DNA from: Caulobacter mirabilis
GTDB taxonomy: Bacteria > Pseudomonadota > Alphaproteobacteria > Caulobacterales > Caulobacteraceae
Direction: 5' to 3'
NCBI RefSeq assembly: GCF_002749615.1
Contig: NZ_CP024201.1
Span: 2,480,001-2,544,000 of the forward strand
Length of the DNA: 64,000 nucleotides
Part shown: positions 30,500 to 50,340 of the stretch, piece by piece
Numbering within the stretch: the stretch's first letter is position 1
How the letters are laid out: every line of letters begins with the position of its first letter
Notes under the pieces: generated by a model
Seen by the model: the letters and a program-made list of their open reading frames with translations, nothing else
Database searches by the model: none
Told to the model about the DNA's origin: nothing
Translations under genes and position numbers: made by a program

Positions 30500-30540
30500 G
30501 CGGATGTGGCGGAACTGGTAGACGCACTGGATTTAGGTTC
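30500..30540 (+). pseudogene. tRNA-Leu(UAG), 5' half, split by the element
   Basis: These 41 bases hold the acceptor 5' strand GCGGATG, the D arm, the 5' anticodon stem (30527-30531), the loop with anticodon TAG (30534-30536) and the first two bases of the 3' stem. The following element sequence does not continue a tRNA. Joined to 50297-50340 it makes a perfect 85-nt tRNA-Leu with CCA: acceptor GCGGATG/CATCCGC, long variable arm CGCC-GAGA-GGCG. As it stands the gene cannot give a functional tRNA. Confidence 0.92.
30530..30540 (+). repeat. attL core, 11-bp direct repeat
   Basis: GATTTAGGTTC, identical to 50286-50296. It covers the anticodon loop and the start of the 3' anticodon stem of tRNA-Leu(UAG). 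Crossover lies within it. Confidence 0.9.
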
Positions 30541-30600
30541 AGTCAAGCGTGTCAGAAAATTCTTCAATTTCAGCTAGATATAGCTCGCCAAAATCGACAT

Positions 30601-30619
30601 GTGTCCAGACGCGTGTCCA
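30601..30619. repeat. Paired GTGTCCA motifs, candidate integrase arm sites (left)
   Basis: GTGTCCA occurs at 30601-30607 and 30613-30619, twelve bases apart, 61 bp inside the left end. The same heptamer occurs twice (50192, 50203) near the right end. Paired short repeats about one helical turn apart at both ends resemble arm-type binding sites of tyrosine integrases. Confidence 0.45.
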
Positions 30620-30738
30620 ATCTCAGCTGTTCTAGCTACTAAGCCGCGCGCAATCAGCGGCAGTTAGCCTCCGACTAGACAACGTTTGGTGTTGCGGATC
30701 GAAATCTGCACACTAGGATTCGCAGTCGGGGGCGACGC

Positions 30739-31650
30739 ATGAAGCACAAGCGAGCATGGGACGGTGGAGAATGGCAGAGCTTTGCCCTTCAGCTCGTTCA
30801 GCATCGCCACGGGCACCAGAACATCCAATGCGTACCGGATAAGGTGGCTGGAGACGCCGGCATCGAATTCATCTTCACCGGCGGCACGCTCTATCAGTGC
30901 TATGCGCCAGCGGAGACGAGTGATGTTGCCAAGGCAGCTGAGGCTCAGAAAGCTAAAGCTACAAAAGATCTGAAGAAGCTGGTCACCTATAAGGACAAGC
31001 TCATCCCCCTCCTGAAAGGCTTGTCCATCGACAGGTGGATTTTGCTCTGTCCATTTTTGGACAACAAGGAGGTTGTGGCTCACGTTCGGAGCAAGGCGAT
31101 AGCGCTCCGTTCTGAGAACCTCCCCTTCCTGTCGAACCAGTTCGAAGGCCTCGTGCATTCACAAGAGGACTTTGCCGCTGAGATCGAACTGCTTCGGCAG
31201 CAGTCTATGCTGCCGATGAAAATCGACCTCTCTCCAGCGATGGATATCAGCGCCGCCCAGGGTGGAGAGATCGGCCAGAAGATCACTGAAAAGCTGACCC
31301 GAGGCTTCGAGGCCATCGAGACACCCGAGAAGATCGCCGCGCGGCGAGACACCTACATTCGCAATCACCTGAGCCGCGAGAACGCGCTGGAAAATCTCCG
31401 GCAGAACCACCCGGCGCTGTGGGAGCGGTCCATCCAGTGTCTCTCAGCGGAAGAACAGCGCCTCGCAGCGGTAGGCGCTAGCTCCAGCCTACCTGGTGAC
31501 CAACTGAAGGAAAGTGTTGCTCGCATCGAAGCGGCGCTCTCCAAAGATCTGCCGGATATGCCGGGCGCGTTCGCCACAACGGTTGCTATCGGCACGGTCG
31601 GCGAGTGGCTGATGCGTTGTCCGCTCGACTTCCCGGAGGCAAACAAATGA
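30739..31650 (+). CDS. ABC-3C/Lamassu-like effector with PD-(D/E)xK-type nuclease domain
   Basis: A 303-residue protein, first gene of a three-gene defence operon. The N-terminus carries nuclease-like motifs: E11 in GGEWQ, D39 and E43 in GDAGIE, and Q53-C54-Y55 in LYQCYAP. The third motif has Tyr where classical enzymes have Lys (QxK). I recall the QxYAP form as common in nucleases of ABC-three-component systems. The C-terminal part (about 130-300) is helical and unrecognised. In these systems the effector is unleashed on DNA when the SMC-like ATPase senses foreign DNA. ATGA overlap with the next gene. Confidence 0.7.
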   Translation: MKHKRAWDGGEWQSFALQLVQHRHGHQNIQCVPDKVAGDAGIEFIFTGGTLYQCYAPAETSDVAKAAEAQKAKATKDLKKLVTYKDKLIPLLKGLSIDRWILLCPFLDNKEVVAHVRSKAIALRSENLPFLSNQFEGLVHSQEDFAAEIELLRQQSMLPMKIDLSPAMDISAAQGGEIGQKITEKLTRGFEAIETPEKIAARRDTYIRNHLSRENALENLRQNHPALWERSIQCLSAEEQRLAAVGASSSLPGDQLKESVARIEAALSKDLPDMPGAFATTVAIGTVGEWLMRCPLDFPEANK

Positions 31651-32129
31651 GCCTTCCATCGCAACCAGAACGCTTCTCCTTCAGGCAGCGCCCCATTCCG
31701 GTGCCTGGCGACCTGCGCATCGAATGGCGGGTCTCCCTAATTGTTCTCATGCTTGGACATTCACGAGCGAAGCAAGCCTCTTTGGCCAAGCTGCACATTC
31801 TGAATGACGCGATTAGGGGGAAGCGAAGCGCGCATCTCCTGGAACTGGTCGTCAACTCCAAAGCCGGAATGATGCCGTGGACGTTCCGGATTGAGCCGGC
31901 CTTTGCGCGAGCGGTTGATTTTGTGGTCGGCGACAAACTCGCTGACTGGACCACGTCGTCAAATCGGTCCGGCTTGCAACTCACTGCCAAAGGCATCGCG
32001 CTATTCGAAAAACTCAAAGCGGAAGATGACGTCCTTACGGCCGAAAAGGACGTACTCGCTGTCTACGCAAAGTCGATGACCGAGGGTGCCGTCAGCTTAG
32101 TCATTGGGTCTAAGCGGAGGGCGATGTGA
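31647..32129 (+). CDS. ABC-3C middle component (LmuC-like)
   Basis: A 160-residue protein between the nuclease and the SMC-like ATPase, with four-base overlaps on both sides, which fixes the start at 31647. It has winged-helix-like features: helix pairs RVSLIVLMLGHSRAKQASLAKLH and a basic/amphipathic middle, then GLQLTAKGIALFEKL. Small proteins in this position are the middle component that couples ATPase to effector. Call rests mainly on gene order and helical pattern. Confidence 0.6.
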   Translation: MSLPSQPERFSFRQRPIPVPGDLRIEWRVSLIVLMLGHSRAKQASLAKLHILNDAIRGKRSAHLLELVVNSKAGMMPWTFRIEPAFARAVDFVVGDKLADWTTSSNRSGLQLTAKGIALFEKLKAEDDVLTAEKDVLAVYAKSMTEGAVSLVIGSKRRAM

Positions 32130-34192
32130 TTCACGTTCGCCATCTTCGTCTCCGGTCGATCACCGCCACCCGGATCTATGGGGCAGACATTCCCCTAAAG
32201 GCGGGCCTCAACATCATCCAGGCCAACAACACATCCGGGAAGTCCACCTCCCTTCAAGCGATCATCTATGCGCTAGGCCTAGAACGTTCTCTCGGTCCGC
32301 AGCTTACAGTTCCGCTCCCTTACGCGATGAGAGAGCGAATTCATCCGACGGAGGACGCGCCGTATGAACACGTCCTGCAGTCATACGTCGAAATCGAAAT
32401 TGAGAATGGTAAGAAGCAATCGCTGATCGTTCGTCGCGACATTGTTGGCGGCAAGGATACCAAGCTTGTCCAGACGTGGAACCAGGGGTCTCTTGCGCAG
32501 AACGGCAAGCGGGGAGAACAGCGTGACTTCTTCGTCCATGATGGCGGCGCCGCCCAACGCGAGGACGGCTTCCACACGTACCTAACCACCTTTATCGGAT
32601 GGGAGCTTCCCGTCGTTCCCAAGTTCGACGGCACCGAAGGGCCTCTTTACCTAGAGGCCATCACACCGATGCTTTTCGTTGAACAGAAGCGTGGTTGGTC
32701 CGCAATCCAAGGACCGTTCCCGACATTCCTGAAAATCCAGGATGTGGCGCGGCGTGTCATGGAGTTTTTGCTTGACCTTGACGCTGGAAAAATTCGGCGT
32801 CAGCGGACGGAGTTGCGCAACGCTCTAGCTTCGGTTTCGCAGCGATGGGCGGATCGCCGTCAACTACTTGAGGACCAAGCACAGCGAGTTGGGCGATTGC
32901 GCGGTATTCCGATGCAGCCGAGCGCTGAGTTCGCGCTTGCGCCGGATATGAAGCTTGAACTCTTCCGCGATGAAGAGTGGCTGCCGATCGACGAAGTCGT
33001 CTCTGAAACGAAAGCGCGCATCAGTGAGCTCGAAGTCGCCCAGATAGAGACCACGGAAGATGCAGCGCCAGAGCTACTCAAACGCCTCGAAACCGCCCGT
33101 CGCGCGATCGACGATCTTTCGGCGCAGGCAGAGGTCGTTCGGTCGGAGTTGGGCGCGGAACACCAAGAGCAACAAGCCATCCGAGCCCGACTGGACTCGT
33201 TGAATGCTGATCTACGGCGTAATCAAGACGCCTTGAAGTTGAGAAGGTTGGGCTCCGATCTTGGGCAAGCTGCTGGCGAACACGTCTGCCCTACATGCCA
33301 TCAAGACGTAGGGAATGAGCTCCTCCCCGCCGTCGAAAATGTCGGCATGGGGCTCGAAGAGAACATCACTTTTGTGAAGTCGCAGATCGATCTTTATGGA
33401 ACCGCCCTCCAAAGCGCGTCTCAAAGGGTTCAGGACTGTCAAGCGCGCTACCGCGGCATTGAGGAAGCGCTCCAAGAAAGGCAAGCCGAGCTGCGAAGTC
33501 TGCGGCAAGCGCTCCTCCAGCCAAGCTCCGCTCCCTCGCGGGTTGTGATTGAGGAGATTGTTCGCTCGCAAGCCTTCGTCGAGCGCATAGGCTCTCTCGA
33601 CGAGGCCGCCAGCATCGCTGGCGCGGAACTCCAACGGCTGGCGAAGGAATGGTCGGAGCTTCAGGACGCAATGAAGCGGTTGCCGGCCGACGAACTGACT
33701 TGGGCTGATCGCGAGAAGATCGATGCGTTTCAAGCGTCGGTCCAAAGCCAGCTTGAGAATTACGGGTTCAAGTCGTTTCAGCCGACAGAAATCATTCTGT
33801 CCCGTGACAACTTTCGCCCGTTAGCCGTCACGAGGGGGAAAGACGGAGCGCTCATCGAGCAGGAGATCGGGTACGAGGTTTCCGCTAGTGACGCCATCCG
33901 TCTCAAGTGGGCCTACTACCTCGCCTTGCTTCGCTTGGCGGCGGTGAAGAGCACAAATCACACAGGCGTGGTCATCTTTGATGAGCCGGGCCAACAGGAG
34001 ATTGACGCGCAGGCTCTGTATGCACTCCTTGCAAACGCAGCCGAACAAGGTGCCACCAGCCAACAAGTTATCGTTGCGACCTCCGAACCGCTGGATCCCG
34101 TCCGCTCAGCTGTTGGATCAAAAGCGCATATCGTCAGCTTCCCTGGTTTCATCTTGCAGCCGCTCCCCACCGTCGAGGACCTGCTCGGATGA
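32126..34192 (+). CDS. SMC/RecN-like ATPase of an ABC-3C/Lamassu-like system
   Basis: A 688-residue ATPase with a GTG start. Walker A ANNTSGKST spans residues 33-41. Two coiled-coil arms (about 200-385 and 400-545) flank a zinc-hook-like C388-P-T-C391-H. Walker B is VVIFDEPG with D619-E620, followed by QQVIVATSEP. Such Rad50-like proteins sense unusual DNA ends and license the partner nuclease. The three-gene order nuclease, middle component, ATPase with overlapping starts matches ABC-3C/Lamassu-type anti-phage systems. It ends nine bases before a convergent small gene. Confidence 0.82.
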   Translation: MIHVRHLRLRSITATRIYGADIPLKAGLNIIQANNTSGKSTSLQAIIYALGLERSLGPQLTVPLPYAMRERIHPTEDAPYEHVLQSYVEIEIENGKKQSLIVRRDIVGGKDTKLVQTWNQGSLAQNGKRGEQRDFFVHDGGAAQREDGFHTYLTTFIGWELPVVPKFDGTEGPLYLEAITPMLFVEQKRGWSAIQGPFPTFLKIQDVARRVMEFLLDLDAGKIRRQRTELRNALASVSQRWADRRQLLEDQAQRVGRLRGIPMQPSAEFALAPDMKLELFRDEEWLPIDEVVSETKARISELEVAQIETTEDAAPELLKRLETARRAIDDLSAQAEVVRSELGAEHQEQQAIRARLDSLNADLRRNQDALKLRRLGSDLGQAAGEHVCPTCHQDVGNELLPAVENVGMGLEENITFVKSQIDLYGTALQSASQRVQDCQARYRGIEEALQERQAELRSLRQALLQPSSAPSRVVIEEIVRSQAFVERIGSLDEAASIAGAELQRLAKEWSELQDAMKRLPADELTWADREKIDAFQASVQSQLENYGFKSFQPTEIILSRDNFRPLAVTRGKDGALIEQEIGYEVSASDAIRLKWAYYLALLRLAAVKSTNHTGVVIFDEPGQQEIDAQALYALLANAAEQGATSQQVIVATSEPLDPVRSAVGSKAHIVSFPGFILQPLPTVEDLLG

Positions 34193-34201
34193 TGCTGAGC
34201 C

Positions 34202-35896: not shown

Positions 35897-36252
35897 GCGG
35901 CAAAGGCGCGAGGCTTCGTGTCGAGCCCCATAACATTGCGATGTATTGACCACGCCTAGGGGTGTCGGGGGCGCGGCCTACGCCCCTGACCTGGACACGG
36001 GAGAGTTCCCGTTCCGCTGCCGGGAGCTTGCTTAGGCGCCGGTCGGCCGGGGGTGGTAACGGGGGTGGCCCGAACCCCCTCCCAACCCCATCGGCTTCTG
36101 TTGCCGCCATGCACCCATGGCGGAAATCCGAGGCCGATCTCAACCAAAGGGCGACCACTTCCCTTGGTGCACATCCGCAGGATGTATAAGTGCACCCATA
36201 TCGCCTTTCTTCCTTACGGTCGCTCGGCAAGCGTCTCGTTGGGGGTTGGGGT
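35897..36252. other. Intergenic region preceding relaxase, includes candidate oriT
   Basis: No gene on either strand fits. It includes a GC-rich stem GGGGCG...CGCCCC around 35969-35988 and the oriT-like hairpin at 36166-36197, listed separately. Confidence 0.5.
36166..36197 (+). other. Candidate origin of transfer (oriT), MOBQ type
   Basis: Inverted repeat GGTGCAC-ATCC (36166-36176) / GGAT (36180-36183) and GTGCACC (36190-36196), nested around GCA. The right arm overlaps TAAGTGCACCC (36187-36197), close to the RSF1010-type nick region as I recall it (TAAGTGCGCCC). It lies about 55 bp upstream of the MOBQ relaxase start, the usual place. Confidence 0.6.
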
Positions 36253-37239
36253 ATGGCTATCTACCACCTCCGTCTCAAGGTGGTTTCGCGTGCGCTCGGT
36301 CGGGCCGCCAAGGTCGGCGGAGCCACGCGCCGTTCGGTTGTCGCCGCCGCAGCGTATCGCTCCGGGGAACGGCTCTACGACGTCTCGCAAGGGCGCTGGT
36401 TCACTTTCGACAAACCGGACGTCGTGCACACGGAGATCATCGCCCCGCCGGGCGCGCCGGCGTGGGTGTTCGGCCGGCAGACGCTGTGGAACATGGTCGA
36501 GCGGGCGGAGAAGCGGGTGGACGCCCAGCTCGCCCGCGAGGTGGAAGTCACCCTGCCCCGCGAACTATCACGCGACGACCAGATCGAGCTGGTGCGCCGG
36601 TTCGTGCGCGAGCAGTTCGTGGCCCAGGGGATGGTGGCGGACGTGGGCGTTCACGAACCCGATGCGTCGGACGGCAAGGCGCAGCCGCATGCGCATGTGC
36701 TGCTCACCATGCGCTATCTCGACGAGGCGACGGGCACCGGCTTCTCGGCGAACAAGGAGCGCGATTGGAACGAGCGCGAGGACATCGCGCAGGCCGTCAA
36801 CGAGGCCCGCAAGCGTTTCAATGACACGGGCCTGGACGCCGACAAGGACGCCCTCGAAGCGGCCGAGGCGCTGCGCAATGTGAACGTCTGGCGGTCGGCC
36901 TGGGCGGACTACGCCAACGGCGCGCTAGCGCGCGCCGGCTCGGCCGAGCGGATCGATCACCGCACGCTGGAGAAGCAGGGGATCTTCCGCATGGCCGAGC
37001 CCTATCTCGGCCTCGCCCGCCATGTGGAGAAGGCCTACGCTTATCTGAAGGAGCGCGTGACCCAATGGGTCGCGGTGAAGACGCGCACGGCGCTCTACGA
37101 CGACATCGAGCACTACAAGCAGCGCGACCCGAAGGGGCTGGCGGATTTCGTGCTGCGCCTGGGCGAGATGGCGGAGGGCTTCGCGGCCTCGCTGCGCCGG
37201 CCGGACCAACCTATTCCGGAGGTCGACCTTGACCGATGA
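36253..37239 (+). CDS. mobA: MobA/MobL-family relaxase (MOBQ)
   Basis: A 328-residue relaxase that nicks one strand at oriT and pilots it into the recipient. Motif I is MAIYHLRLKVVSR with AAYRSGE placing the catalytic tyrosine candidate at Y35. Motif III is PHAHVLLTMR, giving the metal-binding H146 and H148. Start chosen at MAIYHL, the universal start of the family; an in-frame ATG 63 bp upstream lies in the oriT hairpin. It is short: no primase or helicase tail. It overlaps the next gene by 11 bases. Confidence 0.9.
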   Translation: MAIYHLRLKVVSRALGRAAKVGGATRRSVVAAAAYRSGERLYDVSQGRWFTFDKPDVVHTEIIAPPGAPAWVFGRQTLWNMVERAEKRVDAQLAREVEVTLPRELSRDDQIELVRRFVREQFVAQGMVADVGVHEPDASDGKAQPHAHVLLTMRYLDEATGTGFSANKERDWNEREDIAQAVNEARKRFNDTGLDADKDALEAAEALRNVNVWRSAWADYANGALARAGSAERIDHRTLEKQGIFRMAEPYLGLARHVEKAYAYLKERVTQWVAVKTRTALYDDIEHYKQRDPKGLADFVLRLGEMAEGFAASLRRPDQPIPEVDLDR

Positions 37240-37718: not shown

Positions 37719-38999
37719 ATGGTACCTGGGATAGACCCGATTTCTTCGATGCTCGGCGGCGCCGCCATCGGCATTTCGAGCTCAATCGCGGGGCGTCTTG
37801 CGCAGCGCTACCTGCCCACGAAACTCGAAGTCAGCCAGGCGGCCTGGTACGATGCGCAGCGTGCGCGGATGGACACTGATCTCGACCTCTATCGAGACCG
37901 CATGCGGCTCGCGGAGGAACAGTTTCAGACGCAGATCGCGGAAGCGCGCGAACGCCTGATCGAGGATCACCGGAACCGTAAGGAACAGATCGCCTACGCC
38001 GAGCAGTTGCGGCGTTGGGATCTCCCCTTTCGGCCGGAAAACTTCCTTCTGCGGTCAAGCAAGCGCGGCGTTCAAAGCCTCAACATCATCGCCCTGCACG
38101 CCGACTTCCGCCCCTCTCAGTTGCGGCTAGCGGGAGACACGACGGCGATCGACGGACTCCTGGATGGGACTCGGCAAGCCAGCGACCGATTGCTTCAGCT
38201 GTATGGCGGCCCCGTCGAGGGACACCAGGTCGTTTTCTACCGGGATCGCCAGGTGCGCGATGACCTGGACATGCAATCGCTCGTGACCGATCTGTCAGGC
38301 CTGCTCTCGACCGAGCCCACCTTGGTCATCGCTCTCGGCCCGGAAGCCCAGGACTCGTACAAGGTCACCCTTGCTCATTGGGGATTGCTCGCTTCGACGG
38401 AGCCCAACCCAGTCGTTGCGGCACCCTTTTCGGTATCACTGGCGCACCACGGCGCCGGGGCCAGGCTAGATGTCCGCGACACCATGATGCGGGTAACGGC
38501 GGCTTTGGCGATAGCATCAGCGGATGCGTATTTCGCGCTGAGAGTTCCACACGAGCTGCCGCAGCCGCGCCTGACGGACCTCATGGGCCATTTGCTGCCA
38601 GACGAGGTTACCTGGTCGTGGGGCCCGCTTACGGCGAGCTACGCCGATGCGGTCCAGAAGCTTCGCGGACAGAACCCAGGTCTCGCCGCGGAGCTCGCCG
38701 CGGGAGCGGCGCTGGGAGCTCTGGAAGCGGGCAATCCGACCTACGCTGGGGAACTGCTCGACCTAGCGCTGGGCGTCTACCCGTGGCCGGGGCCCGTCAA
38801 CGCGACCGATGGCGCGAGGTACGAGCATCTCGTGCGCATCGAACTACCGAGGCGCGCGCAATCCAACCTTCGGATCGCGCTTGAACGTCTGAGGTCATTC
38901 ACTCCGCCGACAAACATCCGGTCTGCGGCCGATGACTTGAACACATCGGCTTCCCGTCTTGGCCCGAGGGGGCAACGCAACAATGGGGGCATTCGTTGA
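37719..38999 (+). CDS. Unrecognised protein, first gene of GTPase operon
   Basis: A 426-residue protein. The N-terminus has a small-residue-rich hydrophobic stretch (SSMLGGAAIGISSSIAGRLA, about 9-28), then a highly charged coiled coil (about 35-105), then an alpha/beta domain (about 115-330) and a helical tail. No catalytic motif recognised. A TTGA overlap with the GTPase gene shows tight coupling. It lies between mobilisation and coupling-protein genes, a cargo position. Perhaps a membrane-linked sensor or effector partner. Confidence 0.7.
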   Translation: MVPGIDPISSMLGGAAIGISSSIAGRLAQRYLPTKLEVSQAAWYDAQRARMDTDLDLYRDRMRLAEEQFQTQIAEARERLIEDHRNRKEQIAYAEQLRRWDLPFRPENFLLRSSKRGVQSLNIIALHADFRPSQLRLAGDTTAIDGLLDGTRQASDRLLQLYGGPVEGHQVVFYRDRQVRDDLDMQSLVTDLSGLLSTEPTLVIALGPEAQDSYKVTLAHWGLLASTEPNPVVAAPFSVSLAHHGAGARLDVRDTMMRVTAALAIASADAYFALRVPHELPQPRLTDLMGHLLPDEVTWSWGPLTASYADAVQKLRGQNPGLAAELAAGAALGALEAGNPTYAGELLDLALGVYPWPGPVNATDGARYEHLVRIELPRRAQSNLRIALERLRSFTPPTNIRSAADDLNTSASRLGPRGQRNNGGIR

Positions 39000-40108
39000 A
39001 AATCGCGCTTATCGGCGCTCCGTCGTCCGGAAAGACAACCTATTTCTCCGGGCTGTACCTCGCCTTCCGCAATTCCATCGCCTTCAAACACATGACCGAT
39101 GGTCAGATCATGGAGGCGCAGAAGCGAGGTCTTTCCGAGCAATTTTCCTTCCGGGTCAGTATATCCGATAGCGATCTCGACGGATTTATGTCGAGGAATT
39201 CGGCATCCCTTCTAAGGATTCCAGTCGAATACCCGAACGGAAACATATATTTGGACAAAGGATTGATTTCCGGGATTTTTGCTTTTCGACCACTTACTGG
39301 CGATCAGCTAACAGAAAAACACATTCGAGACTTCACAATATTTGATCCTCCAGGCGGAGCGTTTCATGGCCTTCATGAGAAATCGGACGATATAGTTGAA
39401 GAGATGGCGTCTTGCGACGTTTTCATTGTGCTTCTGGATGCCGAAAACATAATGGAAGCTCTGAGGCGGAAGTCAAAAAACGAAGCCTTTCAGTTCCTGG
39501 CAGCGCTGGGTAAGATTGATGAGACAATCAGGGACGCCTCCAGCAGTTTGATTGATGGGGACATTCTTCCTGTTTGTTTTATGATATCGAAGTTCGACAT
39601 TCTTCAAGAAAATGTAATAAAAGAAGTAAACGACCTCATATATGATAATCTTATTCTTCCATATTCGGGGGAAAATGATAAATATATGATCTGTGTCTGC
39701 CCTACATCTGTCGTTGATCAAAAGCATGGCGAGTTTTCGCCATATAATCTTGAGTGGCCGTTCATTTTTAGCGTAGCGGGCACTATTTTTCGGAATAGCC
39801 TGGCTGTTCGCGCCGATGCGGACACCCATAGCCGCCTGACCCATGATCATGAAGTTCGGGCGCGGGAGGTGGAGCGCGGTTCCTGGTGGCTCAAGCTGAC
39901 GGCCTATCTGAGGGGTACGGGGGTGGACGCCTCCAAAGCCCGAGCCCGCGAGCTGCGGGACAAGCGCGGTAGGCTTATCACCATCGCCGATGATGATCTC
40001 ACGCTAGCGCGGAAACTCTGGGGCCGCCTTTCGACAGAAGGTCGCGCTCGGCATGTTCGCGTTTTCATGGGCGGAAGCGAGATCGATCCCGCCATTGTGG
40101 CGGACTAA
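38996..40108 (+). CDS. P-loop GTPase-like protein, chimeric base composition
   Basis: A 370-residue protein with a TTG start overlapping the previous stop. G1/Walker A is GAPSSGKTT (residues 7-15), G3-like D117-P-P-G120 and G4-like S198-K-F-D201. This spacing suits a TRAFAC-type GTPase such as the double-GTPase proteins of conflict systems, but only one GTPase domain is seen. The middle (about 39170-39790) is strongly AT-rich (15 of 60 bases G/C in 39601-39660) while both ends are GC-rich, so the gene looks recombinant. Two bases separate it from the next gene. Confidence 0.75.
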   Translation: MKIALIGAPSSGKTTYFSGLYLAFRNSIAFKHMTDGQIMEAQKRGLSEQFSFRVSISDSDLDGFMSRNSASLLRIPVEYPNGNIYLDKGLISGIFAFRPLTGDQLTEKHIRDFTIFDPPGGAFHGLHEKSDDIVEEMASCDVFIVLLDAENIMEALRRKSKNEAFQFLAALGKIDETIRDASSSLIDGDILPVCFMISKFDILQENVIKEVNDLIYDNLILPYSGENDKYMICVCPTSVVDQKHGEFSPYNLEWPFIFSVAGTIFRNSLAVRADADTHSRLTHDHEVRAREVERGSWWLKLTAYLRGTGVDASKARARELRDKRGRLITIADDDLTLARKLWGRLSTEGRARHVRVFMGGSEIDPAIVAD

Positions 40109-40110
40109 CT

Positions 40111-41386: not shown

Positions 41387-41925
41387 GAAGACAGCGGCTC
41401 CCTAGCGATGAAGGAGGTTAGGTGCGCAGGCAGTGCCGCCATGGCGCTGGCGACGCTTGGTGATCCCGCGCCGCCGCTGACGCATACCGCGACCGGCATG
41501 CTGCGGGGCTGAGGTTTCGGCCGCTTCTTCATGGCCCAGCGCACCGCTGCGATCACGACCAGCGCGGCGGACCCCAGCCAGAAGAGCGCGACCGGGCCCT
41601 GCATCGCGGGGTCTGACGCGCTGTCGACTGCCAGCCAGGCGAGGACGCACCAGGCGGCCACGCCCAGCATGATGCGCCGCGGAACTGGCGGCGACGCACG
41701 GCGAGCACCGCCCATCGCATCCCACTCGCGTTTCCAGGCGGTGTAGGCGTTGACCCGGTTCGCGGCGCGGAAGGCATAGCTGCCGGCGACGACCCCAACG
41801 GCGGCGAGGAAGAACGGCACCTGGCCCAGGAACCAGCCGATGAGGCCAGTGGCCGCGAGGATGGTGAGGACAAGCGCGCTGGCAGGATTGCCGAACAGCC
41901 ATTCGACGGGCTTGGGCGATCTCAT
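41383..41925 (-). CDS. Membrane protein linked to coupling protein
   Basis: A 180-residue inner-membrane protein with about four hydrophobic helices (17-33, 36-52, 86-101, 112-128) and a basic loop. ATGA overlap with the upstream coupling-protein gene. Many VirD4-type proteins have N-terminal membrane helices; the coupling protein here lacks them, so this neighbour could supply the membrane anchor. That role is inference. Confidence 0.7.
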   Translation of the reverse strand: MRSPKPVEWLFGNPASALVLTILAATGLIGWFLGQVPFFLAAVGVVAGSYAFRAANRVNAYTAWKREWDAMGGARRASPPVPRRIMLGVAAWCVLAWLAVDSASDPAMQGPVALFWLGSAALVVIAAVRWAMKKRPKPQPRSMPVAVCVSGGAGSPSVASAMAALPAHLTSFIAREPLSS

Positions 41926-43490
41926 TGCTGGAACTCCACATGCAGGTAGTTGCGGGCGCTATCGGCGAAACGGCGGCCGGCGGAGAACCACAGCGCGGTG
42001 ACCCTTCCGCGGTTGGCGGGACCGCCGGTCACGAGATCCCGCGCGAAGGTGGCGGGTTCGATCTCGTGGTCCATGGTTTCGCTGAAGCCGCGGCTGTGGC
42101 TCGTGCCGTCGTTGACGCCGCGATTGCGACCCCAGCTGTCGCCGGTGCTGTAGCTGGAGCTCGACGACCAGTTGGAGCTGCCGTTGCCCTTGCTGTCGGT
42201 GGAGCCGCCGCCGCCGCTAGTGCTGCTCCAGGACTCGTTCTCGCCGGCGTTCATGCCCATGGACGAGCCGTAGCTTTCGCCGCTGCTTTGGTTGTAGCGG
42301 CGTTGCAGGGAGCGGCCGATCATGTCTGACGCCCAACGGTTGGTCTCGGGGTCGGCCGAGTTGTGGAAGACCTTGGTGACGAAGTTGGCCAGCAGCATGT
42401 CGGCGCGGTGCTTGGCGTGCTCGCCGCCCATCTTGGCGTAGTAGGTCGGCAGCGACTGCGTGAGGAAGACGGTGCAGGCCTTGGCCGAACGGCAGGTCGA
42501 CTGGAAGTCGGTGTCGAAGGCGTTGACGAAATACTGGCTCTCGTCGGCCCAGAGGAAGACGGGCCGATCGCGGTGCTGGGTCTCGAGCGCGTTGCGCGCC
42601 AGCACCGCACGCTGCCACATGAACTTGAAGAGCTGCTGGGCGATGACGCCGTCTTCCGACCAGGTGAGCGCCGACATGTCGAGAATGATGATCGCGCCGT
42701 GGAAGGTCATCTCGGGCACGAGCGTGGTTTCGGTGCAAAAGGCGCGGTGCAGCCGGCCGCGATTGAAGCGGTCGAGTGTGGTCGACAAGGTGATGGCGAT
42801 GTTGCCGCGCGTTTTCGGATCGAGCTGGGCGTACTCGTTGCGCCAGTAGCTCGCGGTCTTCTCGAAGTCGCCCTCGGCCATCGGCATGACCGGGTTGCGG
42901 TGCGCGGCGGCGAGCGCCTGATACATGAAGGAGGTCGACTGCCAGTCGGCATCGTGAAGCTGGTCGAGGTTGACAGGCGCGGTGCTGACGAAGCGAATGA
43001 TGTCGGGGATGCGCACGGTTCCGGTCGCGGCGTAGAGGACCGGAATGGAGTTGCGCAGCAACTGGCGCGTGGCGTCTTCCCAGAAGGACTCGCCGGAGCG
43101 GCCGTCGCCCTTGGAGAGGCGCGCGGCATCGACGATGCGCATGAGGCATTCGACGACGCTGCCGATGCCGTCCTGCCCCTGACGGGCGAGCTCGTAGGTG
43201 AGGAAGTTAAAGGCCCCGCCGCGATCGCCGAAGAGGACGACGGAGTTCCCCCGCCCGTTCTCTTTCGCGTAGCGCTGCCAGAGCTCGACCTCGTCGGGCT
43301 TGGCGGCCAGGACCAGGCCGCCCATGCCAGCGCGCAGATAGGCCGAGGCCAGCACCTTGCCGCTGCCCGAGGTTTTGCCGGAGCCGATGCCGCCGAAAAT
43401 ATGGACGCCCTGGCAGGCATCGCGAAGCGTGAAGTAGTCGCTGCCGGACAGGCGCAGCAGGCGCGTATCGAGCGCGCTCACGTAACTCAT
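41922..43490 (-). CDS. VirD4/TraD-like type IV coupling protein
   Basis: A 522-residue ATPase that hands the relaxase-DNA complex to a secretion channel. Walker A GGIGSGKT at residues 33-40, Walker B VFLWADESQY with D316-E317. No N-terminal transmembrane helices, unlike classical VirD4. Residues about 401-470 form an unusual Ser/Gly/Asn-rich low-complexity insert. No other secretion genes are present. ATGA overlap with the small membrane-protein gene downstream. Confidence 0.88.
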   Translation of the reverse strand: MSYVSALDTRLLRLSGSDYFTLRDACQGVHIFGGIGSGKTSGSGKVLASAYLRAGMGGLVLAAKPDEVELWQRYAKENGRGNSVVLFGDRGGAFNFLTYELARQGQDGIGSVVECLMRIVDAARLSKGDGRSGESFWEDATRQLLRNSIPVLYAATGTVRIPDIIRFVSTAPVNLDQLHDADWQSTSFMYQALAAAHRNPVMPMAEGDFEKTASYWRNEYAQLDPKTRGNIAITLSTTLDRFNRGRLHRAFCTETTLVPEMTFHGAIIILDMSALTWSEDGVIAQQLFKFMWQRAVLARNALETQHRDRPVFLWADESQYFVNAFDTDFQSTCRSAKACTVFLTQSLPTYYAKMGGEHAKHRADMLLANFVTKVFHNSADPETNRWASDMIGRSLQRRYNQSSGESYGSSMGMNAGENESWSSTSGGGGSTDSKGNGSSNWSSSSSYSTGDSWGRNRGVNDGTSHSRGFSETMDHEIEPATFARDLVTGGPANRGRVTALWFSAGRRFADSARNYLHVEFQQ

Positions 43491-45496: not shown

Positions 45497-45528
45497 GACG
45501 CCGTCTGAAGCAACCGCATCATGACGGC
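45497..45528 (+). repeat. 32-bp direct repeat, right copy
   Basis: Second copy of the repeat at 44194-44225, with no mismatches. It overlaps the stop codon (45519-45521) and final codons of the minus-strand tyrosine recombinase, a typical place for an attachment site. Confidence 0.85.
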
Positions 45529-46127
45529 TTATCGAACGTACGCTCATCCCACAGGCGCGCGGCGAAGCTGCGTTCTTCGTCGCCGACAGCCTGCTGGTAG
45601 ATCACGGTGGAACGTGGGCTCGCATGGCCTAGCCAACGCTGCGTCAGCGCAGTGGGCACATCGTGCTCGGCGGCGCGCACGCCGAAGCGATGGCGCAACC
45701 CTTTGGGCATGGCCTGCCCGCCGGTGATGCCAGCTGTCGTCATCACACGTTTGATGCGCCGCCAACCGGTCTGTCGGCACCAGGGCCAGATCCGTTCGTC
45801 TGGCCCGAGCCGATGTGCGAGGTCGACCAACTCGGCCATCATCGCGGGCGGTATGGGAACCGCGCGAAACACCAGGCGGCGGCGCTTCAATGTACGGAAC
45901 ACGATGTGACCGCGTTCGCGATCGAGCCGGCTCGGCGAGAGCTCCAACGCTTCGCTGATCCGGCAGCCGCTGGTGGCGAGTACGCGGCAGAGAGCGCGGG
46001 TCAACGGATCGGCTTTTGCCGCCTCGGCGAGAAAGCGGCGCCCCTCATCGCCGGTGAGATACTTTCGCTGGCCTCGACAATCAAAGAGGCTGAGGGGATC
46101 GGACTGATCTGCTCGGCTGACGCTCAC
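45519..46127 (-). CDS. Short tyrosine recombinase (catalytic domain only)
   Basis: A 202-residue recombinase. The catalytic set is visible: R56 (SGCRISE), K81 (LKRRR), R145 (GLRHRFG), H168 (WLGHAS) and Y177 (VIYQQA). The N-terminal core-binding domain typical of XerC/D and phage integrases is missing or reduced to about 25 residues. Its 3' end contains the 32-bp repeat, so it may act on that site. It is distinct from the main element integrase at 48857. Confidence 0.85.
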   Translation of the reverse strand: MSVSRADQSDPLSLFDCRGQRKYLTGDEGRRFLAEAAKADPLTRALCRVLATSGCRISEALELSPSRLDRERGHIVFRTLKRRRLVFRAVPIPPAMMAELVDLAHRLGPDERIWPWCRQTGWRRIKRVMTTAGITGGQAMPKGLRHRFGVRAAEHDVPTALTQRWLGHASPRSTVIYQQAVGDEERSFAARLWDERTFDKPS

Positions 46128-46353: not shown

Positions 46354-46722
46354 GTGGCCAGGAACTTCTCAGCAGTTTTTGCCGTCCTGGCGGTGCTTAC
46401 AGCAGCTCCGCCGGCCGACGCGACACAGGCCGGTGCGAACCAACTCGCCTACAATAGCGCCATCAAATGCCTCGTCGCAAACAGTAGAGCGAAGAGCATG
46501 CGCCTACGGGTTGGCGATGAAACCGGCGCAGCGCGCTATGACACCCAGGCACGGAAAACGTTCGATGTGGCGGTGCGGCTGGGGCGCGGCATTGGGCTGT
46601 CGAACGAGCGGATCAATGGCGACCTCGACGCAATGATGGATCGAGAACTGCCACTGATGGTGCAGGACAACGCGTACTTCCGCCAGACGGTCGCTGACTG
46701 CCGCACCATGGGTCTGATGTGA
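46354..46722 (+). CDS. Small secreted protein
   Basis: A 122-residue protein with a GTG start and a signal peptide (about 1-23, PPADATQA). Two cysteines in the mature part (IKCLVAN and VADCRTM) could form a disulfide. Helical, no recognised domain. It ends just before a convergent gene. Function unknown. Confidence 0.65.
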   Translation: MARNFSAVFAVLAVLTAAPPADATQAGANQLAYNSAIKCLVANSRAKSMRLRVGDETGAARYDTQARKTFDVAVRLGRGIGLSNERINGDLDAMMDRELPLMVQDNAYFRQTVADCRTMGLM

Positions 46723-46723
46723 T

Positions 46724-47557
46724 CTAGGCGATGCCGGCTTGTGGGCCGGGCTTGGCGCTCTGCGTTACGCCGTGTCCGCTTTGGGACTGATCGGCGACGG
46801 TCACACCGGCGGACCGCAAGGACGCGAGAAGCGCCGGATCAATATTGGAGTTCGGTGCGATGTCGTCGAGCGGGTCGATATTCTGTGCTGAAGGCGCGGT
46901 ATTGCCCCGTTCTCTGCTGCCGCGGCCGATTTGCGCCTCCAGAGCAGTTTCGGCACGGCCGAAGCGTTCATCCCAACGTGCATAGTCTGGGCTTGCGGTC
47001 GCGCCATGCGCGCCAGCGTCACGCAACTGGTCGCGCGACAGACGCACGGCGCGCAGATCGCCTTCAGGCGTGCCTTCAGCTTTGGCCCGTTCAATCTGCT
47101 GCTGACGTTCGGCCTCACGCTTGCGATAGGCCTCTTCTTCCTCGGCGCTGCTGAAGCGCAGGTACGGGTCGAAGATGCGGTCGCGATAGTAGGCATCAGC
47201 GAACTCGTTGACGGCGGCGCGGGCTTCGGTGCGAGCGACATCCAGCGCGGAAGCCGAACGGTCGCTGGTCAACGCTGAGGCGCGGACCTGTTGGGCGACG
47301 TTGGTCGCGGCGGTGACGCAGGCGACGATTTCACCACGAAGCGCCGCTGCGCTGACGGTTCCTGAAGCCAGGCGGCGTTGGAAACCGACCAAGTCAGTCA
47401 TCTGCGCTTCGGCTGCGGCAAGCAACTCGGCTCCGCCGGCACGGCGCAGTTCCTGAATTTGGCTGGTGAGTTCGGTTTGGGCGTTGAGTAGCTGCATCAG
47501 CAGTTCAGCGCGGAGGCTAGCCTCCGAACCAGCGGGCGAAGCCTGCTGGTGGCGCAC
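46724..47557 (-). CDS. Hypothetical coiled-coil protein
   Basis: A 277-residue soluble protein, mostly helical, with a charged coiled coil (about 135-165, EEEEAYRKREAERQQQIERAK) and a Pro/Ser/Asn-rich tail. Resembles accessory proteins in alphaproteobacterial mobilisation regions but family not recognised. It converges on the small secreted-protein gene. Confidence 0.65.
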   Translation of the reverse strand: MRHQQASPAGSEASLRAELLMQLLNAQTELTSQIQELRRAGGAELLAAAEAQMTDLVGFQRRLASGTVSAAALRGEIVACVTAATNVAQQVRASALTSDRSASALDVARTEARAAVNEFADAYYRDRIFDPYLRFSSAEEEEAYRKREAERQQQIERAKAEGTPEGDLRAVRLSRDQLRDAGAHGATASPDYARWDERFGRAETALEAQIGRGSRERGNTAPSAQNIDPLDDIAPNSNIDPALLASLRSAGVTVADQSQSGHGVTQSAKPGPQAGIA

Positions 47558-47872
47558 ATTGCTGTCTGTAGGGTCGCCGACGATACGCTACTCCAATTGG
47601 GTCATCGTAGCGGTCAATCGTTAGGATTTCGTTAAGCATTTGGCAGCTCTGCCCAGGCTAACCCGTTCCGGTTCAAGGGTTTCCTGGCCCCACGCGGCAT
47701 GCGCAGTGGGGATTTCGGAAGGTGGCTAGGGCTGCGTTTCCGCAAGGCGCTCGCTTCATTCTTGCAGCTTCGCCCGCCAGGGGCGGCTATCGGCCTGTGC
47801 GGGAACGCCATGGACCCAACGCCCAAGAGTTCCTCATCCCGCGCATTCCGCGCGGGGCCAAAGGAGGAAACC
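47558..47872. other. 315-bp gap between hypothetical genes
   Basis: No convincing coding sequence. A 7-bp stem CCCGCGC (47838-47844) / GCGCGGG (47850-47856) ends 16 bases before the start codon of the 31-residue protein and could modulate its translation. Confidence 0.4.
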
Positions 47873-47968
47873 ATGACCTATACCGAGATCGCTCTGTGCA
47901 TCACCGCCGCCGCTCAACTCATCGCCGCGGTCGCAGCCCTGATCAGCGTGGTGCGAGGCTCCCCTTAG
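47873..47968 (+). CDS. 31-residue membrane peptide
   Basis: MTYTEIALCITAAAQLIAAV is the first part of a 31-residue, almost fully hydrophobic peptide. The ATG follows an ideal ribosome site AAAGGAGGAAACC, which is why I chose it over a longer frame from 47699. One membrane helix; might be a small regulatory or toxin-like peptide. Function unknown. Confidence 0.5.
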   Translation: MTYTEIALCITAAAQLIAAVAALISVVRGSP

Positions 47969-48055
47969 GGAGGGCTAAGCGTATTCCAACTAAGCGGCGG
48001 CTTTGACCGGTGCTAGAAGCTTAGTGACTAAATAGCGCCAAGGAAGAGAACTACA

Positions 48056-48586
48056 GTGGAATGGCTGGAACAGCACGAAGCCTTGGCGGGCTGGGCGCAA
48101 TTCCTCGGTGCCGTGCTCGCATTGTTCCTGACGTACATCACCGCATTTGCTCCCACTTGGCGTCGTAAGCGACAGCTGCGGGACGAGGCAATGCGCTTGC
48201 TCATGCATGGGTACGAAGTGATCGAGAGCTTTCATCGAACCTCGGCGCACTTTGCTCCGTTCCAACTCTCCCTGCGCCAAGCAGCTCTCAGCATGAACGC
48301 AGCCATTGAGGATCTGGGCCGGTTTCCAGTTTACGAGCTGGACAATAATTTCGGCACGATGTCGCTGGCGCGACGTCTCATGACGATGCGCATGACCGTC
48401 GCAGCCGCGAAGCTGTTCCTCGACCAGGCGGCGCAGGATATCGGCGATAGGACGGCCACGGCCGAGGAACACGAGTTTTTGCGGGAAATGGTCGGGCAGC
48501 AGCTCAAGATGGCCGAGAACCTCCTGATGAACCGGCAGATGGCACGACCGGAGTGGCCCGCGCCCGGGGCCGCGGAGACCGCATAA
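48056..48586 (+). CDS. Hypothetical protein with one membrane helix
   Basis: A 176-residue protein, GTG start after AAGGAAGAG. One N-terminal membrane segment (about 13-33, FLGAVLALFLTYITAFA) and a long helical cytoplasmic part (about 36-165). No recognised domain. Convergent with the tRNA-Leu/integrase unit. Confidence 0.65.
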   Translation: MEWLEQHEALAGWAQFLGAVLALFLTYITAFAPTWRRKRQLRDEAMRLLMHGYEVIESFHRTSAHFAPFQLSLRQAALSMNAAIEDLGRFPVYELDNNFGTMSLARRLMTMRMTVAAAKLFLDQAAQDIGDRTATAEEHEFLREMVGQQLKMAENLLMNRQMARPEWPAPGAAETA

Positions 48587-48671
48587 TCGAGTGGATTTTT
48601 GGTGGGCGATGGCTGCGCCCGTTCGGTCGCTTGACGCCACCGGTTCGGCTCGTTCGATCCGCCCCTTCGCC

Positions 48672-48711
48672 AGCGGGCAGCACGGCCAGTTCTGGCCTTT
48701 CGCTGCCCGCT
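48672..48711 (-). terminator. Hairpin downstream of element tRNA-Leu
   Basis: Outer 10-bp stem AGCGGGCAGC (48672-48681) / GCTGCCCGCT (48702-48711) and inner 6-bp stem GGCCAG / CTGGCC. It starts 11 bases after the tRNA 3' end on the minus strand. No T-run follows, so termination or processing is likely rather than certain. Confidence 0.5.
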
Positions 48712-48721
48712 AGAAAGAAGG

Positions 48722-48804
48722 TGGTGCGGCTAGAGGGACTCGAACCCCCACGGTTGCCCGACGGTACCTAAAACCGTTGCGTCTACCAATTCCGCCATAG
48801 CCGC
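48722..48804 (-). tRNA. Intact tRNA-Leu(UAG) carried by the element
   Basis: An 83-nt gene read on the minus strand. Acceptor GCGGCTA/TAGCCGC, D arm GCGGAATTGGTAGACGC, anticodon stem ACGGT/ACCGT with loop TTTAGGT (anticodon TAG), short class II variable arm, T arm with GGTTCGAGTC, discriminator A and encoded CCA. Same anticodon and near-identical D arm as the split host gene, but acceptor, anticodon stem and variable arm differ. Its anticodon region (TTTAGGTACC) does not match the att core, so it is not a target of the integrase. It lies 52 bp downstream of the integrase stop on the same strand. Confidence 0.95.
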
Positions 48805-48856
48805 GGAGAGGCTCGTCTATAGCCGAGCCAGCAGTGGGGGCAAGGAAATCGTCGCC

Positions 48857-50125
48857 CTAGATCGGAGCGGCGGCATCTTGCTCCATCGCCGACATGGGCG
48901 GCACCGGCCGGCCTTTGGCGACCTTGCGCTGTGCCTTCGGGCGCTGGAGATTGATGGCCGTCGTGTCGATCCGATCCTTGATGTGGGCGGCGTAAAATTC
49001 CTCGATCATCTGGACGCTGGTGCGGCAGTTGTTGGCGATCTGATAGATGTTCGCGCCTTCCATGAGGCGCATGGAAATGTAGGTGTGGCGAAGGCTATAG
49101 GCCGTCCGCACGCGGCCGTCGCGGTCACGCTTGAGGCCTTCCTCACGCAGGATGTTGTTGAAGGCGTCGCGCCCGAACTTCGGGAAGAGACGGATGTAGG
49201 GGAGCTGTTTCGTGATCTCCTCGTTCGTCATACCGGCCTGACGAAGCTCTTCGGCCCGTCGCTCCACGAGCCGTTTGTAGGGAAACACGGCGCCCGGCAT
49301 GGTCTTGCAGTAACCGACGCCGGTTTTGCCGCGCACGTCGATCACTAAGATGGTCTGGCCAGTGGCGAAGTCGTCCTCGATGCAGATGTCCCGGATTTCG
49401 AGCCGAGCTGACTCGTCCGGCCGAAGGCCACTGTTGCCGACGAACAGGACGTAGTCGTGTAGGTCCTGATAGCGCTTCTTCCAGCCGCGCCGGCCGTCGC
49501 TACTCTCAGCACGTCGGCGCGTCGCGGTGTATAGCTGCTTGTACTCTTCGGGTGAGAACCATGCCCGCCGCTCGCGCTTGCCCTGGGTCATGTAAGGCAT
49601 GGTGAGGTTGGGCAGGTGTGACAGCCAGCCTAGACCTTCGGCGTGCTTGAGCACCTGCCGGATGTGCACGATCTCCTGGTTCATGGTGCTGCGCGAAGGC
49701 GGCTTGCCCGTCCGAGCGATCGTCTCCTCGGCCCGCGCAACACGGTAGGTCTGCACGAGGCCGCGATTGACCTCCGGCAGCGGTGTCGTCCCGAAGAAGG
49801 GGACGATATGCCGCTTCATCCGAAGGTCGAGCAGTTCGATGTACTTCGGGCTGCGGACCGTCGCCGCGAGCACGCGGGCCTGCCGCATGTAGTGGTCGGC
49901 GGCTTCGCCGAAGGATCGCTCCTTGGGCTTGATCTCGCCATTTCGGACCATGCCGCGCAAGCGGAGGTACCATTCCTCCGCGACGTCCTTGGCACGGTCG
50001 AGATCCTCCTCGCCGGTGCTCTCGCGGAAGCGCTCGCCGCCAACGCGGGCTGCGCATTGCCAGGTCCGCCCCTTATCGCGCCGGTAAACCTGTAGCCGGC
50101 CATCAAACATCGTGTGCGTCGTCAC
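48857..50125 (-). CDS. int: Tyrosine integrase of the element
   Basis: A 422-residue phage-type integrase. An arm-binding-like N-terminus (about 1-70) and SAM-like core-binding domain (about 71-170) precede the catalytic domain. Catalytic residues: R235 (NSGLRPDE), K267 (RGKTGVG), R346 (YSLRHTY) and nucleophile Y378 (MIEEFYAAH). The first His of the HxxR box is Tyr and the GH pair reads NC, deviations found in some integrase groups. Location 160 bp inside the right end and a downstream tRNA gene fit its role in inserting at tRNA-Leu. Confidence 0.92.
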   Translation of the reverse strand: MTTHTMFDGRLQVYRRDKGRTWQCAARVGGERFRESTGEEDLDRAKDVAEEWYLRLRGMVRNGEIKPKERSFGEAADHYMRQARVLAATVRSPKYIELLDLRMKRHIVPFFGTTPLPEVNRGLVQTYRVARAEETIARTGKPPSRSTMNQEIVHIRQVLKHAEGLGWLSHLPNLTMPYMTQGKRERRAWFSPEEYKQLYTATRRRAESSDGRRGWKKRYQDLHDYVLFVGNSGLRPDESARLEIRDICIEDDFATGQTILVIDVRGKTGVGYCKTMPGAVFPYKRLVERRAEELRQAGMTNEEITKQLPYIRLFPKFGRDAFNNILREEGLKRDRDGRVRTAYSLRHTYISMRLMEGANIYQIANNCRTSVQMIEEFYAAHIKDRIDTTAINLQRPKAQRKVAKGRPVPPMSAMEQDAAAPI

Positions 50126-50191
50126 TCTCAGCCCCCTCTGCCGGGGGTAAACCCCGGCTGCGTTCCGACTTCGGCCGCGCTAGCGGACACT

Positions 50192-50209
50192 GTGTCCACG
50201 ATGTGTCCA
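50192..50209. repeat. Paired GTGTCCA motifs, candidate integrase arm sites (right)
   Basis: GTGTCCA at 50192-50198 and 50203-50209; the first forms part of the palindrome GGACACTGTGTCC (50185-50197). They sit 77-94 bp inside the right att core and upstream of the integrase gene. Counterparts at 30601 and 30613. Confidence 0.45.
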
Positions 50210-50249
50210 GGCATTTCAACTGAAGCGCGATCGTAAAGTCGTTGTTTTT

Positions 50250-50267
50250 ATAGAGGTTTTCCTCTAT
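50250..50267. other. Perfect hairpin near attR
   Basis: ATAGAGG-TTTT-CCTCTAT, a 7-bp perfect stem 19 bp inside the right att core, in the AT-rich stretch before it. Could be a DNA-bending or recombination-directionality site, or a transcription stop. Role not known. Confidence 0.4.
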
Positions 50268-50285
50268 TGGGGCTTTGTAGCACCA

Positions 50286-50296
50286 GATTTAGGTTC
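50286..50296 (+). repeat. attR core, 11-bp direct repeat
   Basis: GATTTAGGTTC, identical to 30530-30540. The host tRNA continues directly after it. Confidence 0.9.
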
Positions 50297-50340
50297 CAGC
50301 GCCGAGAGGCGTGGAGGTTCGAGTCCTCTCATCCGCACCA
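50286..50340 (+). pseudogene. tRNA-Leu(UAG), 3' half, split by the element
   Basis: Contains the anticodon loop copy, the rest of the 3' anticodon stem, variable arm CGCC-GAGA-GGCG, T arm with GGTTCGAGTC, acceptor strand CATCCGC, discriminator A and CCA (50338-50340). The element sequence before it (GCACCA) cannot form the acceptor, D arm or anticodon stem. Partner of 30500-30540. Confidence 0.92.

What the first reader, a model, noticed from the sequence alone, without database searches (positions are those of the whole stretch)
30500..50340. Element splits tRNA-Leu(UAG) and carries its own replacement tRNA
The 85-nt host tRNA-Leu(UAG) can be rebuilt perfectly from 30500-30540 plus 50297-50340, so the element went into its anticodon loop. 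Neither junction restores a tRNA: the bases after 30540 and before 50286 cannot form the missing half. Usually tRNA-targeting elements rebuild the gene at one end. Here an intact tRNA-Leu with the same UAG anticodon sits inside the element (48722-48804), next to the integrase and on its strand. Its anticodon-loop flank differs from the att core, so it is immune to the integrase. From general knowledge tRNA-Leu(UAG) is typically single-copy and needed for CUN codons, so the element would make the host dependent on it: an addiction-like tRNA swap. I do not know a named example of this arrangement.
Basis: partly seen in the sequence, partly recalled or inferred. Interest (0 to 1): 0.9.

Follow-up and report, generated by a model that had tools for sequence, protein, structure and literature searches.

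The report
Mobile element that swaps a tRNA
A mobile DNA element has cut the bacterium's only known gene for one leucine tRNA in two and carries its own copy of that tRNA, so the cell probably depends on the element; related elements carry a spare tRNA interrupted by a self-splicing-type intron, which may hide it from the element's own cutting enzyme.

Summary
A 19.76-kb element (11-bp core GATTTAGGTTC at 30530-30540 and 50286-50296) splits the host tRNA-Leu(UAG). The joined halves equal, base for base, the intact 85-nt gene of 5 genus relatives. Neither junction rebuilds a tRNA. The only intact tRNA-Leu(UAG) found in the 4.58-Mb genome is the element's own (48722-48804), beside its integrase.

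It is a lineage, not a one-off. In integrase relatives the broken host gene and the carried tRNA are the same isoacceptor: 10 UAG loci, and UAA and CAA loci, through at least seven target changes on a quick tree. Carried copies without an intron have an altered core (one exception); UAA copies carry a group I intron inside the anticodon and read the intact core only after splicing. Some genomes keep a carried-type tRNA with the integrase decayed or absent, possibly including this host's own tRNA-Leu(UAA).

The principle is known in phages as tRNA-dependent lysogeny (2024), and two Sinorhizobium prophages were reported to break tRNA-Leu(UAG). New here: a relaxase-bearing, apparently non-phage element; the intron-bearing form; the apparent fossils. 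Nothing was tested at the bench. New variant of a known kind, interest 0.72.

The parts
30500..30540 (+). 5' half of host tRNA-Leu(UAG), ends in core (attL side)
   Evidence: matches the 5' part of intact genes of relatives
30530..30540 (+). attL core GATTTAGGTTC
30739..31650 (+). LmuA-like, Lamassu defence (cargo)
   Evidence: PADLOC 1.4e-20
31605..32129 (+). LmuC-like
   Evidence: PADLOC 1.1e-14
32126..34192 (+). LmuB-like SMC-type ATPase
   Evidence: PADLOC 8.4e-104; Pfam AAA_23 1e-6
36190..37239 (+). MobQ/MobA-MobL relaxase
   Evidence: Pfam 1.6e-63; NCBIfam MobQ 2e-67; 71-76% identical in G096, G203, G038
38996..40108 (+). double-GTPase-like protein
   Evidence: Pfam DO-GTPase2 2.3e-10
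41922..43490 (-). TraG/TraD-type coupling protein
   Evidence: Pfam 6.9e-8; 69-74% identical in G096, G203, G038
45519..46127 (-). second, small tyrosine recombinase
   Evidence: Pfam Phage_integrase 1.8e-16; 56-61% identical in G096, G203, G038
46724..47557 (-). backbone protein shared with G096, G203, G038 (39-52%); one weak NCBIfam match far below its cut-off
48722..48804 (-). carried tRNA-Leu(UAG) with CCA; anticodon stem-loop ACGGT-TTTAGGT-ACCGT, core absent
   Evidence: ARAGORN; fold; pairs across relatives
48857..50125 (-). tyrosine integrase, GTG start, 422 aa
   Evidence: PHROG_1 integrase 9.2e-26 (no Pfam match); alignment A2; tree
50286..50296 (+). attR core GATTTAGGTTC
50286..50340 (+). 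core plus 3' half of host tRNA-Leu(UAG) with CCA
   Evidence: 55-56 nt identical in 7 of 7 relatives

Best explanation
An integrative, probably mobilizable element whose tyrosine integrase recombines an 11-bp core inside the anticodon stem-loop of the host's single-copy tRNA-Leu(UAG) gene, splitting it without rebuilding it, while the element supplies a tRNA of the same anticodon from a gene just behind its integrase. The carried gene still forms a tRNA but lacks the core, because its 31:39 pair is U-A instead of A-U (U-A or G-C in relatives), so the integrase should not attack it or recombine it with attL or attR. While integrated, the cell relies on the element for this tRNA; precise excision returns the host gene. 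Over time the rest of the element can decay while the carried tRNA remains as the new chromosomal gene. Shown by sequence: anatomy, single copy, empty site, same-isoacceptor rule, altered core, integrase-less carried-type genes. Inferred: expression, charging, need for the tRNA, immunity, excision, transfer, and that integrase-less genes come from decay.
For: Empty site and exact join. No other intact UAG gene found. Of 44 genomes tested, 43 have exactly one intact tRNA-Leu(UAG); in the 8 with a UAG-branch integrase and its tRNA on the contig, that one is the element's copy. Broken half and carried tRNA both seen in 10 UAG loci, each UAG with UAG. The far half of the host gene was found in 4 of 4 UAG relatives fetched far enough (G096, G292, G203, G038). 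UAG integrases lie on one side of a branch with SH-aLRT 100. In 18 element-type tRNAs (9 beside an integrase, 9 without or with a piece; 17 distinct) 98.1% of cells pair and 8 pairs change on both sides; score, cells paired and cells with double changes were reached by 0 of 500 shuffles. CUA codons occur in host ORFs picked by script (5 in 11,117 codons); by recalled decoding rules this tRNA is their only reader here.
Against: No expression, charging, excision or transfer data. Fold energy of the carried tRNA is not exceptional (z -0.97). In one search the number of double-changed pairs was reached by 12 of 500 shuffles and the number of pair types by 452 of 500, 6 of 17 sequences do not pair at columns 28:44, and the shuffles do not remove relatedness. 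Swapped-pair tRNAs also occur without an integrase. No full conjugation machinery was seen, so mobility rests on a relaxase and a coupling protein.
Confidence: 0.9

Rival explanations
1. The element tRNA is ordinary cargo (translation support, as in many phages) and its match to the broken gene is coincidence.
For: Mobile elements and phages often carry tRNAs (recalled).
Against: Isoacceptor match in every intact pair read, across UAG, UAA and CAA targets and at least seven target changes. In 8 genomes the carried copy is the only intact UAG copy found.
Confidence: 0.03
2. The two halves, 20 kb apart, still make a functional trans-assembled (split) tRNA, and the inner tRNA is redundant.
For: Split tRNAs exist in archaea (PMC3293823, passages).
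Against: No tRNA called at either junction. The left junction (30500-30584) shows no unusual fold (z -0.36). In G372 the retained half has a base change inside the anticodon, as expected without selection.
Confidence: 0.02
3. The element is a prophage and this is plain tRNA-dependent lysogeny in a new host.
For: Same att logic as PMC10865867; phage-type integrase profile PHROG_1.
Against: No PHROG match at 1e-3 for 10 other element proteins (smaller ORFs and the Lamassu genes were not scanned there). No relative of the integrase at 1e-5 in 50,697 phage records (at E up to 1, 27 weak matches, best 2e-3 at 21-26% identity). A pattern-based scan of IMG/VR confirmed none. MobQ relaxase and coupling protein present and conserved.
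Confidence: 0.05

Closest known systems
tRNA-dependent lysogeny (Guerrero-Bustamante and Hatfull 2024, PMC10865867; abstract, Discussion and passages read)
   Same: Tyrosine integrase, attB in a host tRNA gene, short core (about 10 bp; [quoted passage not shown] their phage Gaia encodes tRNA-Leu-CAA downstream of int with an 8-bp core. They also mention Lactobacillus prophage Lj965.
   Different: Temperate actinobacteriophages with bench tests there; here a relaxase-bearing element of an alphaproteobacterium, no phage genes found among those scanned, no bench test. 'Intron' occurs there once, in a reference title.
S. [quoted passage not shown] also cited in PMC12429752, passages)
   Same: Integration inside tRNA-Leu(UAG) breaks the gene and the prophage carries a functionally similar tRNA (2 strains).
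   Different: Called prophages. Whether their integrase belongs to this family was not tested.
Archaeal tRNA introns as protection from integration (Sugahara 2012, PMC3293823, passages; cited in the review PMC8371274, passages)
   Same: Idea that an intron in a tRNA gene blocks integration by mobile elements, to the advantage of host or element.
   Different: Archaeal tRNA introns at the att site; here a group I intron in a separate carried copy in bacteria.
Group I introns in bacterial tRNA genes (PMC4033280 and PMC8450103, passages; PMC4476775, start of abstract in a listing)
   Same: Group I intron in tRNA-Leu(UAA) of cyanobacteria and plastids; tRNA group I introns also in some alpha- and betaproteobacteria.
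   Different: In the text seen, no link to an integrase or to a broken intronless host copy.

Membership tests
tRNA-dependent lysogeny | tyrosine integrase with attB inside a host tRNA gene | tested here: met
tRNA-dependent lysogeny | short core, tRNA not rebuilt at either junction | tested here: met
   11-bp core
[quoted passage not shown]
   relatives
tRNA-dependent lysogeny | carried tRNA required for stable integrants | not testable with these tools
   needs a deletion or integration assay
tRNA-dependent lysogeny | element is a temperate phage | tested here: not met
   no PHROG match at 1e-3 for 10 non-integrase proteins; no phage relatives of the integrase at 1e-5 nor in the IMG/VR scan; relaxase present. 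Not every ORF was scanned.
integrative and mobilizable element (IME) | own integrase and defined att sites | tested here: met
integrative and mobilizable element (IME) | relaxase, without a full type IV secretion system | tested here: inconclusive
   MobQ relaxase and coupling protein present; no mating-pore family seen in the ORFs scanned, but not every ORF was scanned
integrative and mobilizable element (IME) | excision and transfer with a helper | not testable with these tools
   needs a mating assay

The most novel reading that the evidence does not exclude
In this integrase family, group I introns in tRNA-Leu(UAA) act as recombination shields: the element carries a replacement tRNA whose DNA core is split by a self-splicing intron, so the integrase cannot use it, while the mature RNA keeps the exact anticodon loop. 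Repeated loss of the rest of the element then leaves an intron-bearing tRNA as the host's only copy, making such elements a source of tRNA introns and of tRNA gene replacement in alphaproteobacteria.
Probability: 0.6. Interest if true: 0.88.

Novelty: new variant of a known kind. Interest (0 to 1): 0.72.

Why it matters
It extends a 2024 phage phenomenon to a relaxase-bearing, defence-carrying element and suggests that mobile DNA can replace tRNA genes again and again. The UAA branch offers a bacterial system in which the idea that tRNA introns protect against integration can be tested by comparing two DNA substrates. It gives a candidate origin for lone group I introns in tRNA-Leu(UAA) of this family, and a warning to annotators that a broken tRNA plus an extra tRNA may be one functional swap.

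Tried and rejected
Considered and dropped: ordinary cargo tRNA, split tRNA, plain prophage (see rivals). I first expected CAA elements to lack a replacement more often, because tRNA-Leu(CAA) may be dispensable; spoke against it: where saw no intact copy within 1.8 kb, one lay farther downstream on the same contig and strand in 7 genomes (G163, G095, G150, G312, G314, G334, G340; 2-21 kb, not shown to be inside the element). The two exceptions of 17 are G321 (copy on another contig) and G005 (none; the contig ends in the integrase). G150 has a second intact copy on another contig and a degenerate copy beside the integrase (L076).

Against or weakening the core rule: the G312 CAA copy keeps the core; in the other 14 CAA copies the change is one base of the 9-base core, and whether that blocks the integrase is unknown; 3 of 9 genomes without a CAA integrase also have a changed CAA core (14 of 15 against 3 of 9, p 0.004). 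For UAG, 1 of 35 genomes without a UAG integrase has the swapped pair and three more (G024, G025, G041) differ at one core base. The p values treat related genomes as independent. G013 has a swapped pair but is closest to the native gene. 'Remnant' G140 is a contig edge, not decay. G331 has both an intronless and an intron-bearing tRNA-Leu(UAA). A subgroup with an intact tRNA-Met or tRNA-Arg upstream of the integrase looks like ordinary tRNA-preserving integration. In 17 rows of the tree no broken half was seen.

Rows dropped: 13 of 87 integrase matches were not fetched as such (two seen later in L153 and L234). From the intron set, G316 and G342 (partial matches) were not fetched, and 9 family loci (L233, L237, L240, L241, L243, L245, L246, L264, L267) and L216 were left out because ARAGORN did not read a UAA tRNA with the insert. 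From the tree, four genome contigs copies of whole-genome loci, two rows of L077 (same place as L129) and rows under 330 aa were left out.

Viral scan, phage searches and a plasmid DNA search gave nothing close; plasmid integrases reach 48% over most of the query, 51-54% over a fifth to a third of it. Literature searches for an intron-bearing replacement or shield showed none in the listings and passages seen; the library holds open-access papers only.

Full report
1. What is there. The window lies at 2,480,001-2,544,000 of a single-contig genome of 4,577,265 bp, 100% complete by the tool's figure. A relative in the same coded genus (G254, L073) seems to be the same locus as L012, a record titled Caulobacter sp. 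(same match length and identity), so the host is probably Caulobacter or near it (inference). The left half of tRNA-Leu(UAG) is 30500-30540, the right half with CCA 50297-50340. The core GATTTAGGTTC is at 30530-30540 and 50286-50296, spacing 19,756 bp, and at no other place in the genome under pattern GRTTTAGGTWC. ARAGORN finds one tRNA in the window, 48722-48804 on the minus strand, anticodon UAG; its minimum-energy fold is a cloverleaf, of unremarkable energy. Element G+C is 61%, the window's flanks 69%.

2. Empty site. I fetched the intact tRNA-Leu(UAG) locus of 7 genus relatives. In 7 of 7 the window's left 41 nt (97.6-100%) and right 55-56 nt (100%) are contiguous; in 6 of 7 about 1.05 kb of the window's left flank lies beside it (78-80%). 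In 5 of 7 the 85-nt gene equals the joined window halves exactly; the other two (L219, L224) match the left 41 nt at 97.6%.

3. Single copy. The 42 tRNA matches of the genome were fetched and re-read: intact leucine tRNAs are UAG (element), CAG, CAA and GAG. The fifth, UAA, is at G000:C1:1327858 and holds a group I intron (RF00028, 38.8 bits, below the gathering score of 50, E 2.2e-7). tRNA-Ala(UGC) and tRNA-Ile(GAU) are not in the 42, so the scan misses some genes; searched for UAG directly. Of 44 genomes chosen for a pattern test, 43 have exactly one intact tRNA-Leu(UAG); G254, whose contig ends behind the integrase, has none. By recalled decoding rules CUA needs this tRNA; CUA occurs 5 times in 11,117 codons of host ORFs and 6 times in 1,267 codons of element ORFs, both picked by script.

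4. The lineage. A search of 390 family genomes found integrase relatives in 62 at E <= 1e-60. Loci covering 74 of the 87 listed matches were examined. UAG branch: 11 loci of the tree set (9 family genomes, one contig of a MAG titled Rhodoferax, one genome of another family) have the broken 3' half upstream of the integrase; 10 of 11 have tRNA-Leu(UAG) downstream, the eleventh (G254) is a contig end. UAA branch: 28 family loci have a broken 5' half upstream (in L115 with one changed base). In 20 of 28 a UAA tRNA was read within 1.8 kb downstream, 19 with an intron; in 7 more (G218, G233, G237, G297, G160, G062, G068) an intron copy lies on the same contig and strand 2.9-26 kb from the half; in G140 the integrase and the intron copy sit at two contig edges. 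In other families G488, G770 and G398 show half and intron copy; G713 shows a half and a 5' exon only. CAA branch: 17 loci with a broken half; an intact CAA copy on the same contig and strand downstream in 15 of 17. No intact pair with differing anticodons was seen; a degenerate copy in G150 cannot be read. The tree (86 rows, quick method, SH-aLRT only) puts the 11 UAG rows on one side of a branch (100) and needs at least 7 changes among the three targets, so cargo has followed target repeatedly.

5. Core rule. Carried tRNAs without an intron lack the target core: UAG 10 of 10, UAA 1 of 1 (G314), CAA 14 of 15, there by a single base. Among 35 genomes without a UAG-branch integrase, 1 (G210) has the swapped 31:39 pair (Fisher p 3e-9, relatedness ignored). 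Intron-bearing UAA tRNAs read GACTTAAAA after splicing in 63 of 63, and in 32 of 32 of those with an integrase in the fetched flank. Native intronless UAA genes also have this core (26 of 26), so the loop may be constrained anyway; the point is that the insert, between the first and second anticodon base by ARAGORN's reading, splits the DNA core. Group I identity: 71 of 390 family genomes match RF00028 at E <= 0.001, one match each, 6 over the cut-off (stricter filters); 6 of 6 loci checked separately match, 3 over the cut-off. In the 44-genome test 17 of 18 genomes with an intron copy have no intronless UAA gene (exception G331), and 25 of 26 without one do (exception G301, 77% complete).

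6. Carried-type tRNAs without an integrase. 39 of 390 genomes have a swapped-pair tRNA-Leu(UAG), 8 of them with a UAG-branch integrase. Of the 31 others, 15 were compared: 14 are closest to element copies (89-100%; 71-82% to the native gene), G013 is native-like (95%); the native reference is one sequence from the window's genus. G245 keeps a 3' half (76% to the host gene) 50 bp from the tRNA, with no integrase found in 10 kb; G010 keeps a C-terminal integrase piece (113 aa, 89%). For UAA, G383 has a broken 5' half 32 nt from the intron tRNA and no integrase in the fetched 6.7 kb; G025 has short integrase pieces (53 and 41 aa). Of 63 intron tRNAs (60 family genomes, 3 others; dropped rows are listed elsewhere), 32 have an integrase in the fetched flank (up to about 5 kb), 29 none, 2 a piece, one of these a contig edge; on the intron tree the 'none' group needs at least 9 changes by starred branches. 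Unrooted counts cannot tell loss from gain. This genome's own intron-bearing tRNA-Leu(UAA) has no integrase relative within about 10 kb either side and no broken UAA half matching the pattern, so a second, older swap is possible but unproven.

7. The element. The MobQ relaxase, the TraG/D-type coupling protein and a second small recombinase are shared at 56-76% with the UAG elements of G096, G203 and G038; the Lamassu-like cargo (LmuA, LmuC, LmuB) had no match in the stretches of those genomes. G292 shares integrase and tRNA but only a distant relaxase (37%). Ten non-integrase proteins have no PHROG match at 1e-3.

8. Known kind. tRNA-dependent lysogeny (PMC10865867) has the same logic in phages, with bench proof; PMC11476347 reports two S. 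meliloti strains whose prophages break tRNA-Leu(UAG) and bring a substitute. The archaeal proposal that tRNA introns block integration (PMC3293823) is the nearest idea to the shield. I saw no report of an intron-bearing replacement in the searches listed. Hence: new variant of a known kind.

Noticed in passing
G000:C1:1327858-1328176 (L062 1501-1819), outside the window: The host's tRNA-Leu(UAA) holds a group I intron of about 230 nt inside the anticodon, with no integrase nearby; possibly the relic of an earlier swap.
   Followed up: partly
window 30739-34192: Lamassu-like defence genes (LmuA, LmuC, LmuB) as cargo next to attL.
   Followed up: partly
G038:C1:1030413 and 1032581; G254:C52:115974 and 117947: Two tRNA-Leu(UAG) 5' halves about 2 kb apart, in G038 both followed by nearly the same element-end sequence: tandem or serial insertion.
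   Followed up: no
L217 (G398) and L211-L215: A related integrase subgroup has an intact tRNA-Met(CAU) upstream; L217 also has a second tRNA-Met downstream of the integrase.
   Followed up: no
L116, L120, L108, L129: Two related integrases in tandem, the first beside the broken half and, in L116, L108 and L129, the second beside the replacement tRNA (none seen in L120).
   Followed up: no
L010: A close element on a short contig of a MAG titled Rhodoferax (betaproteobacterium); possibly a misbinned contig.
   Followed up: no
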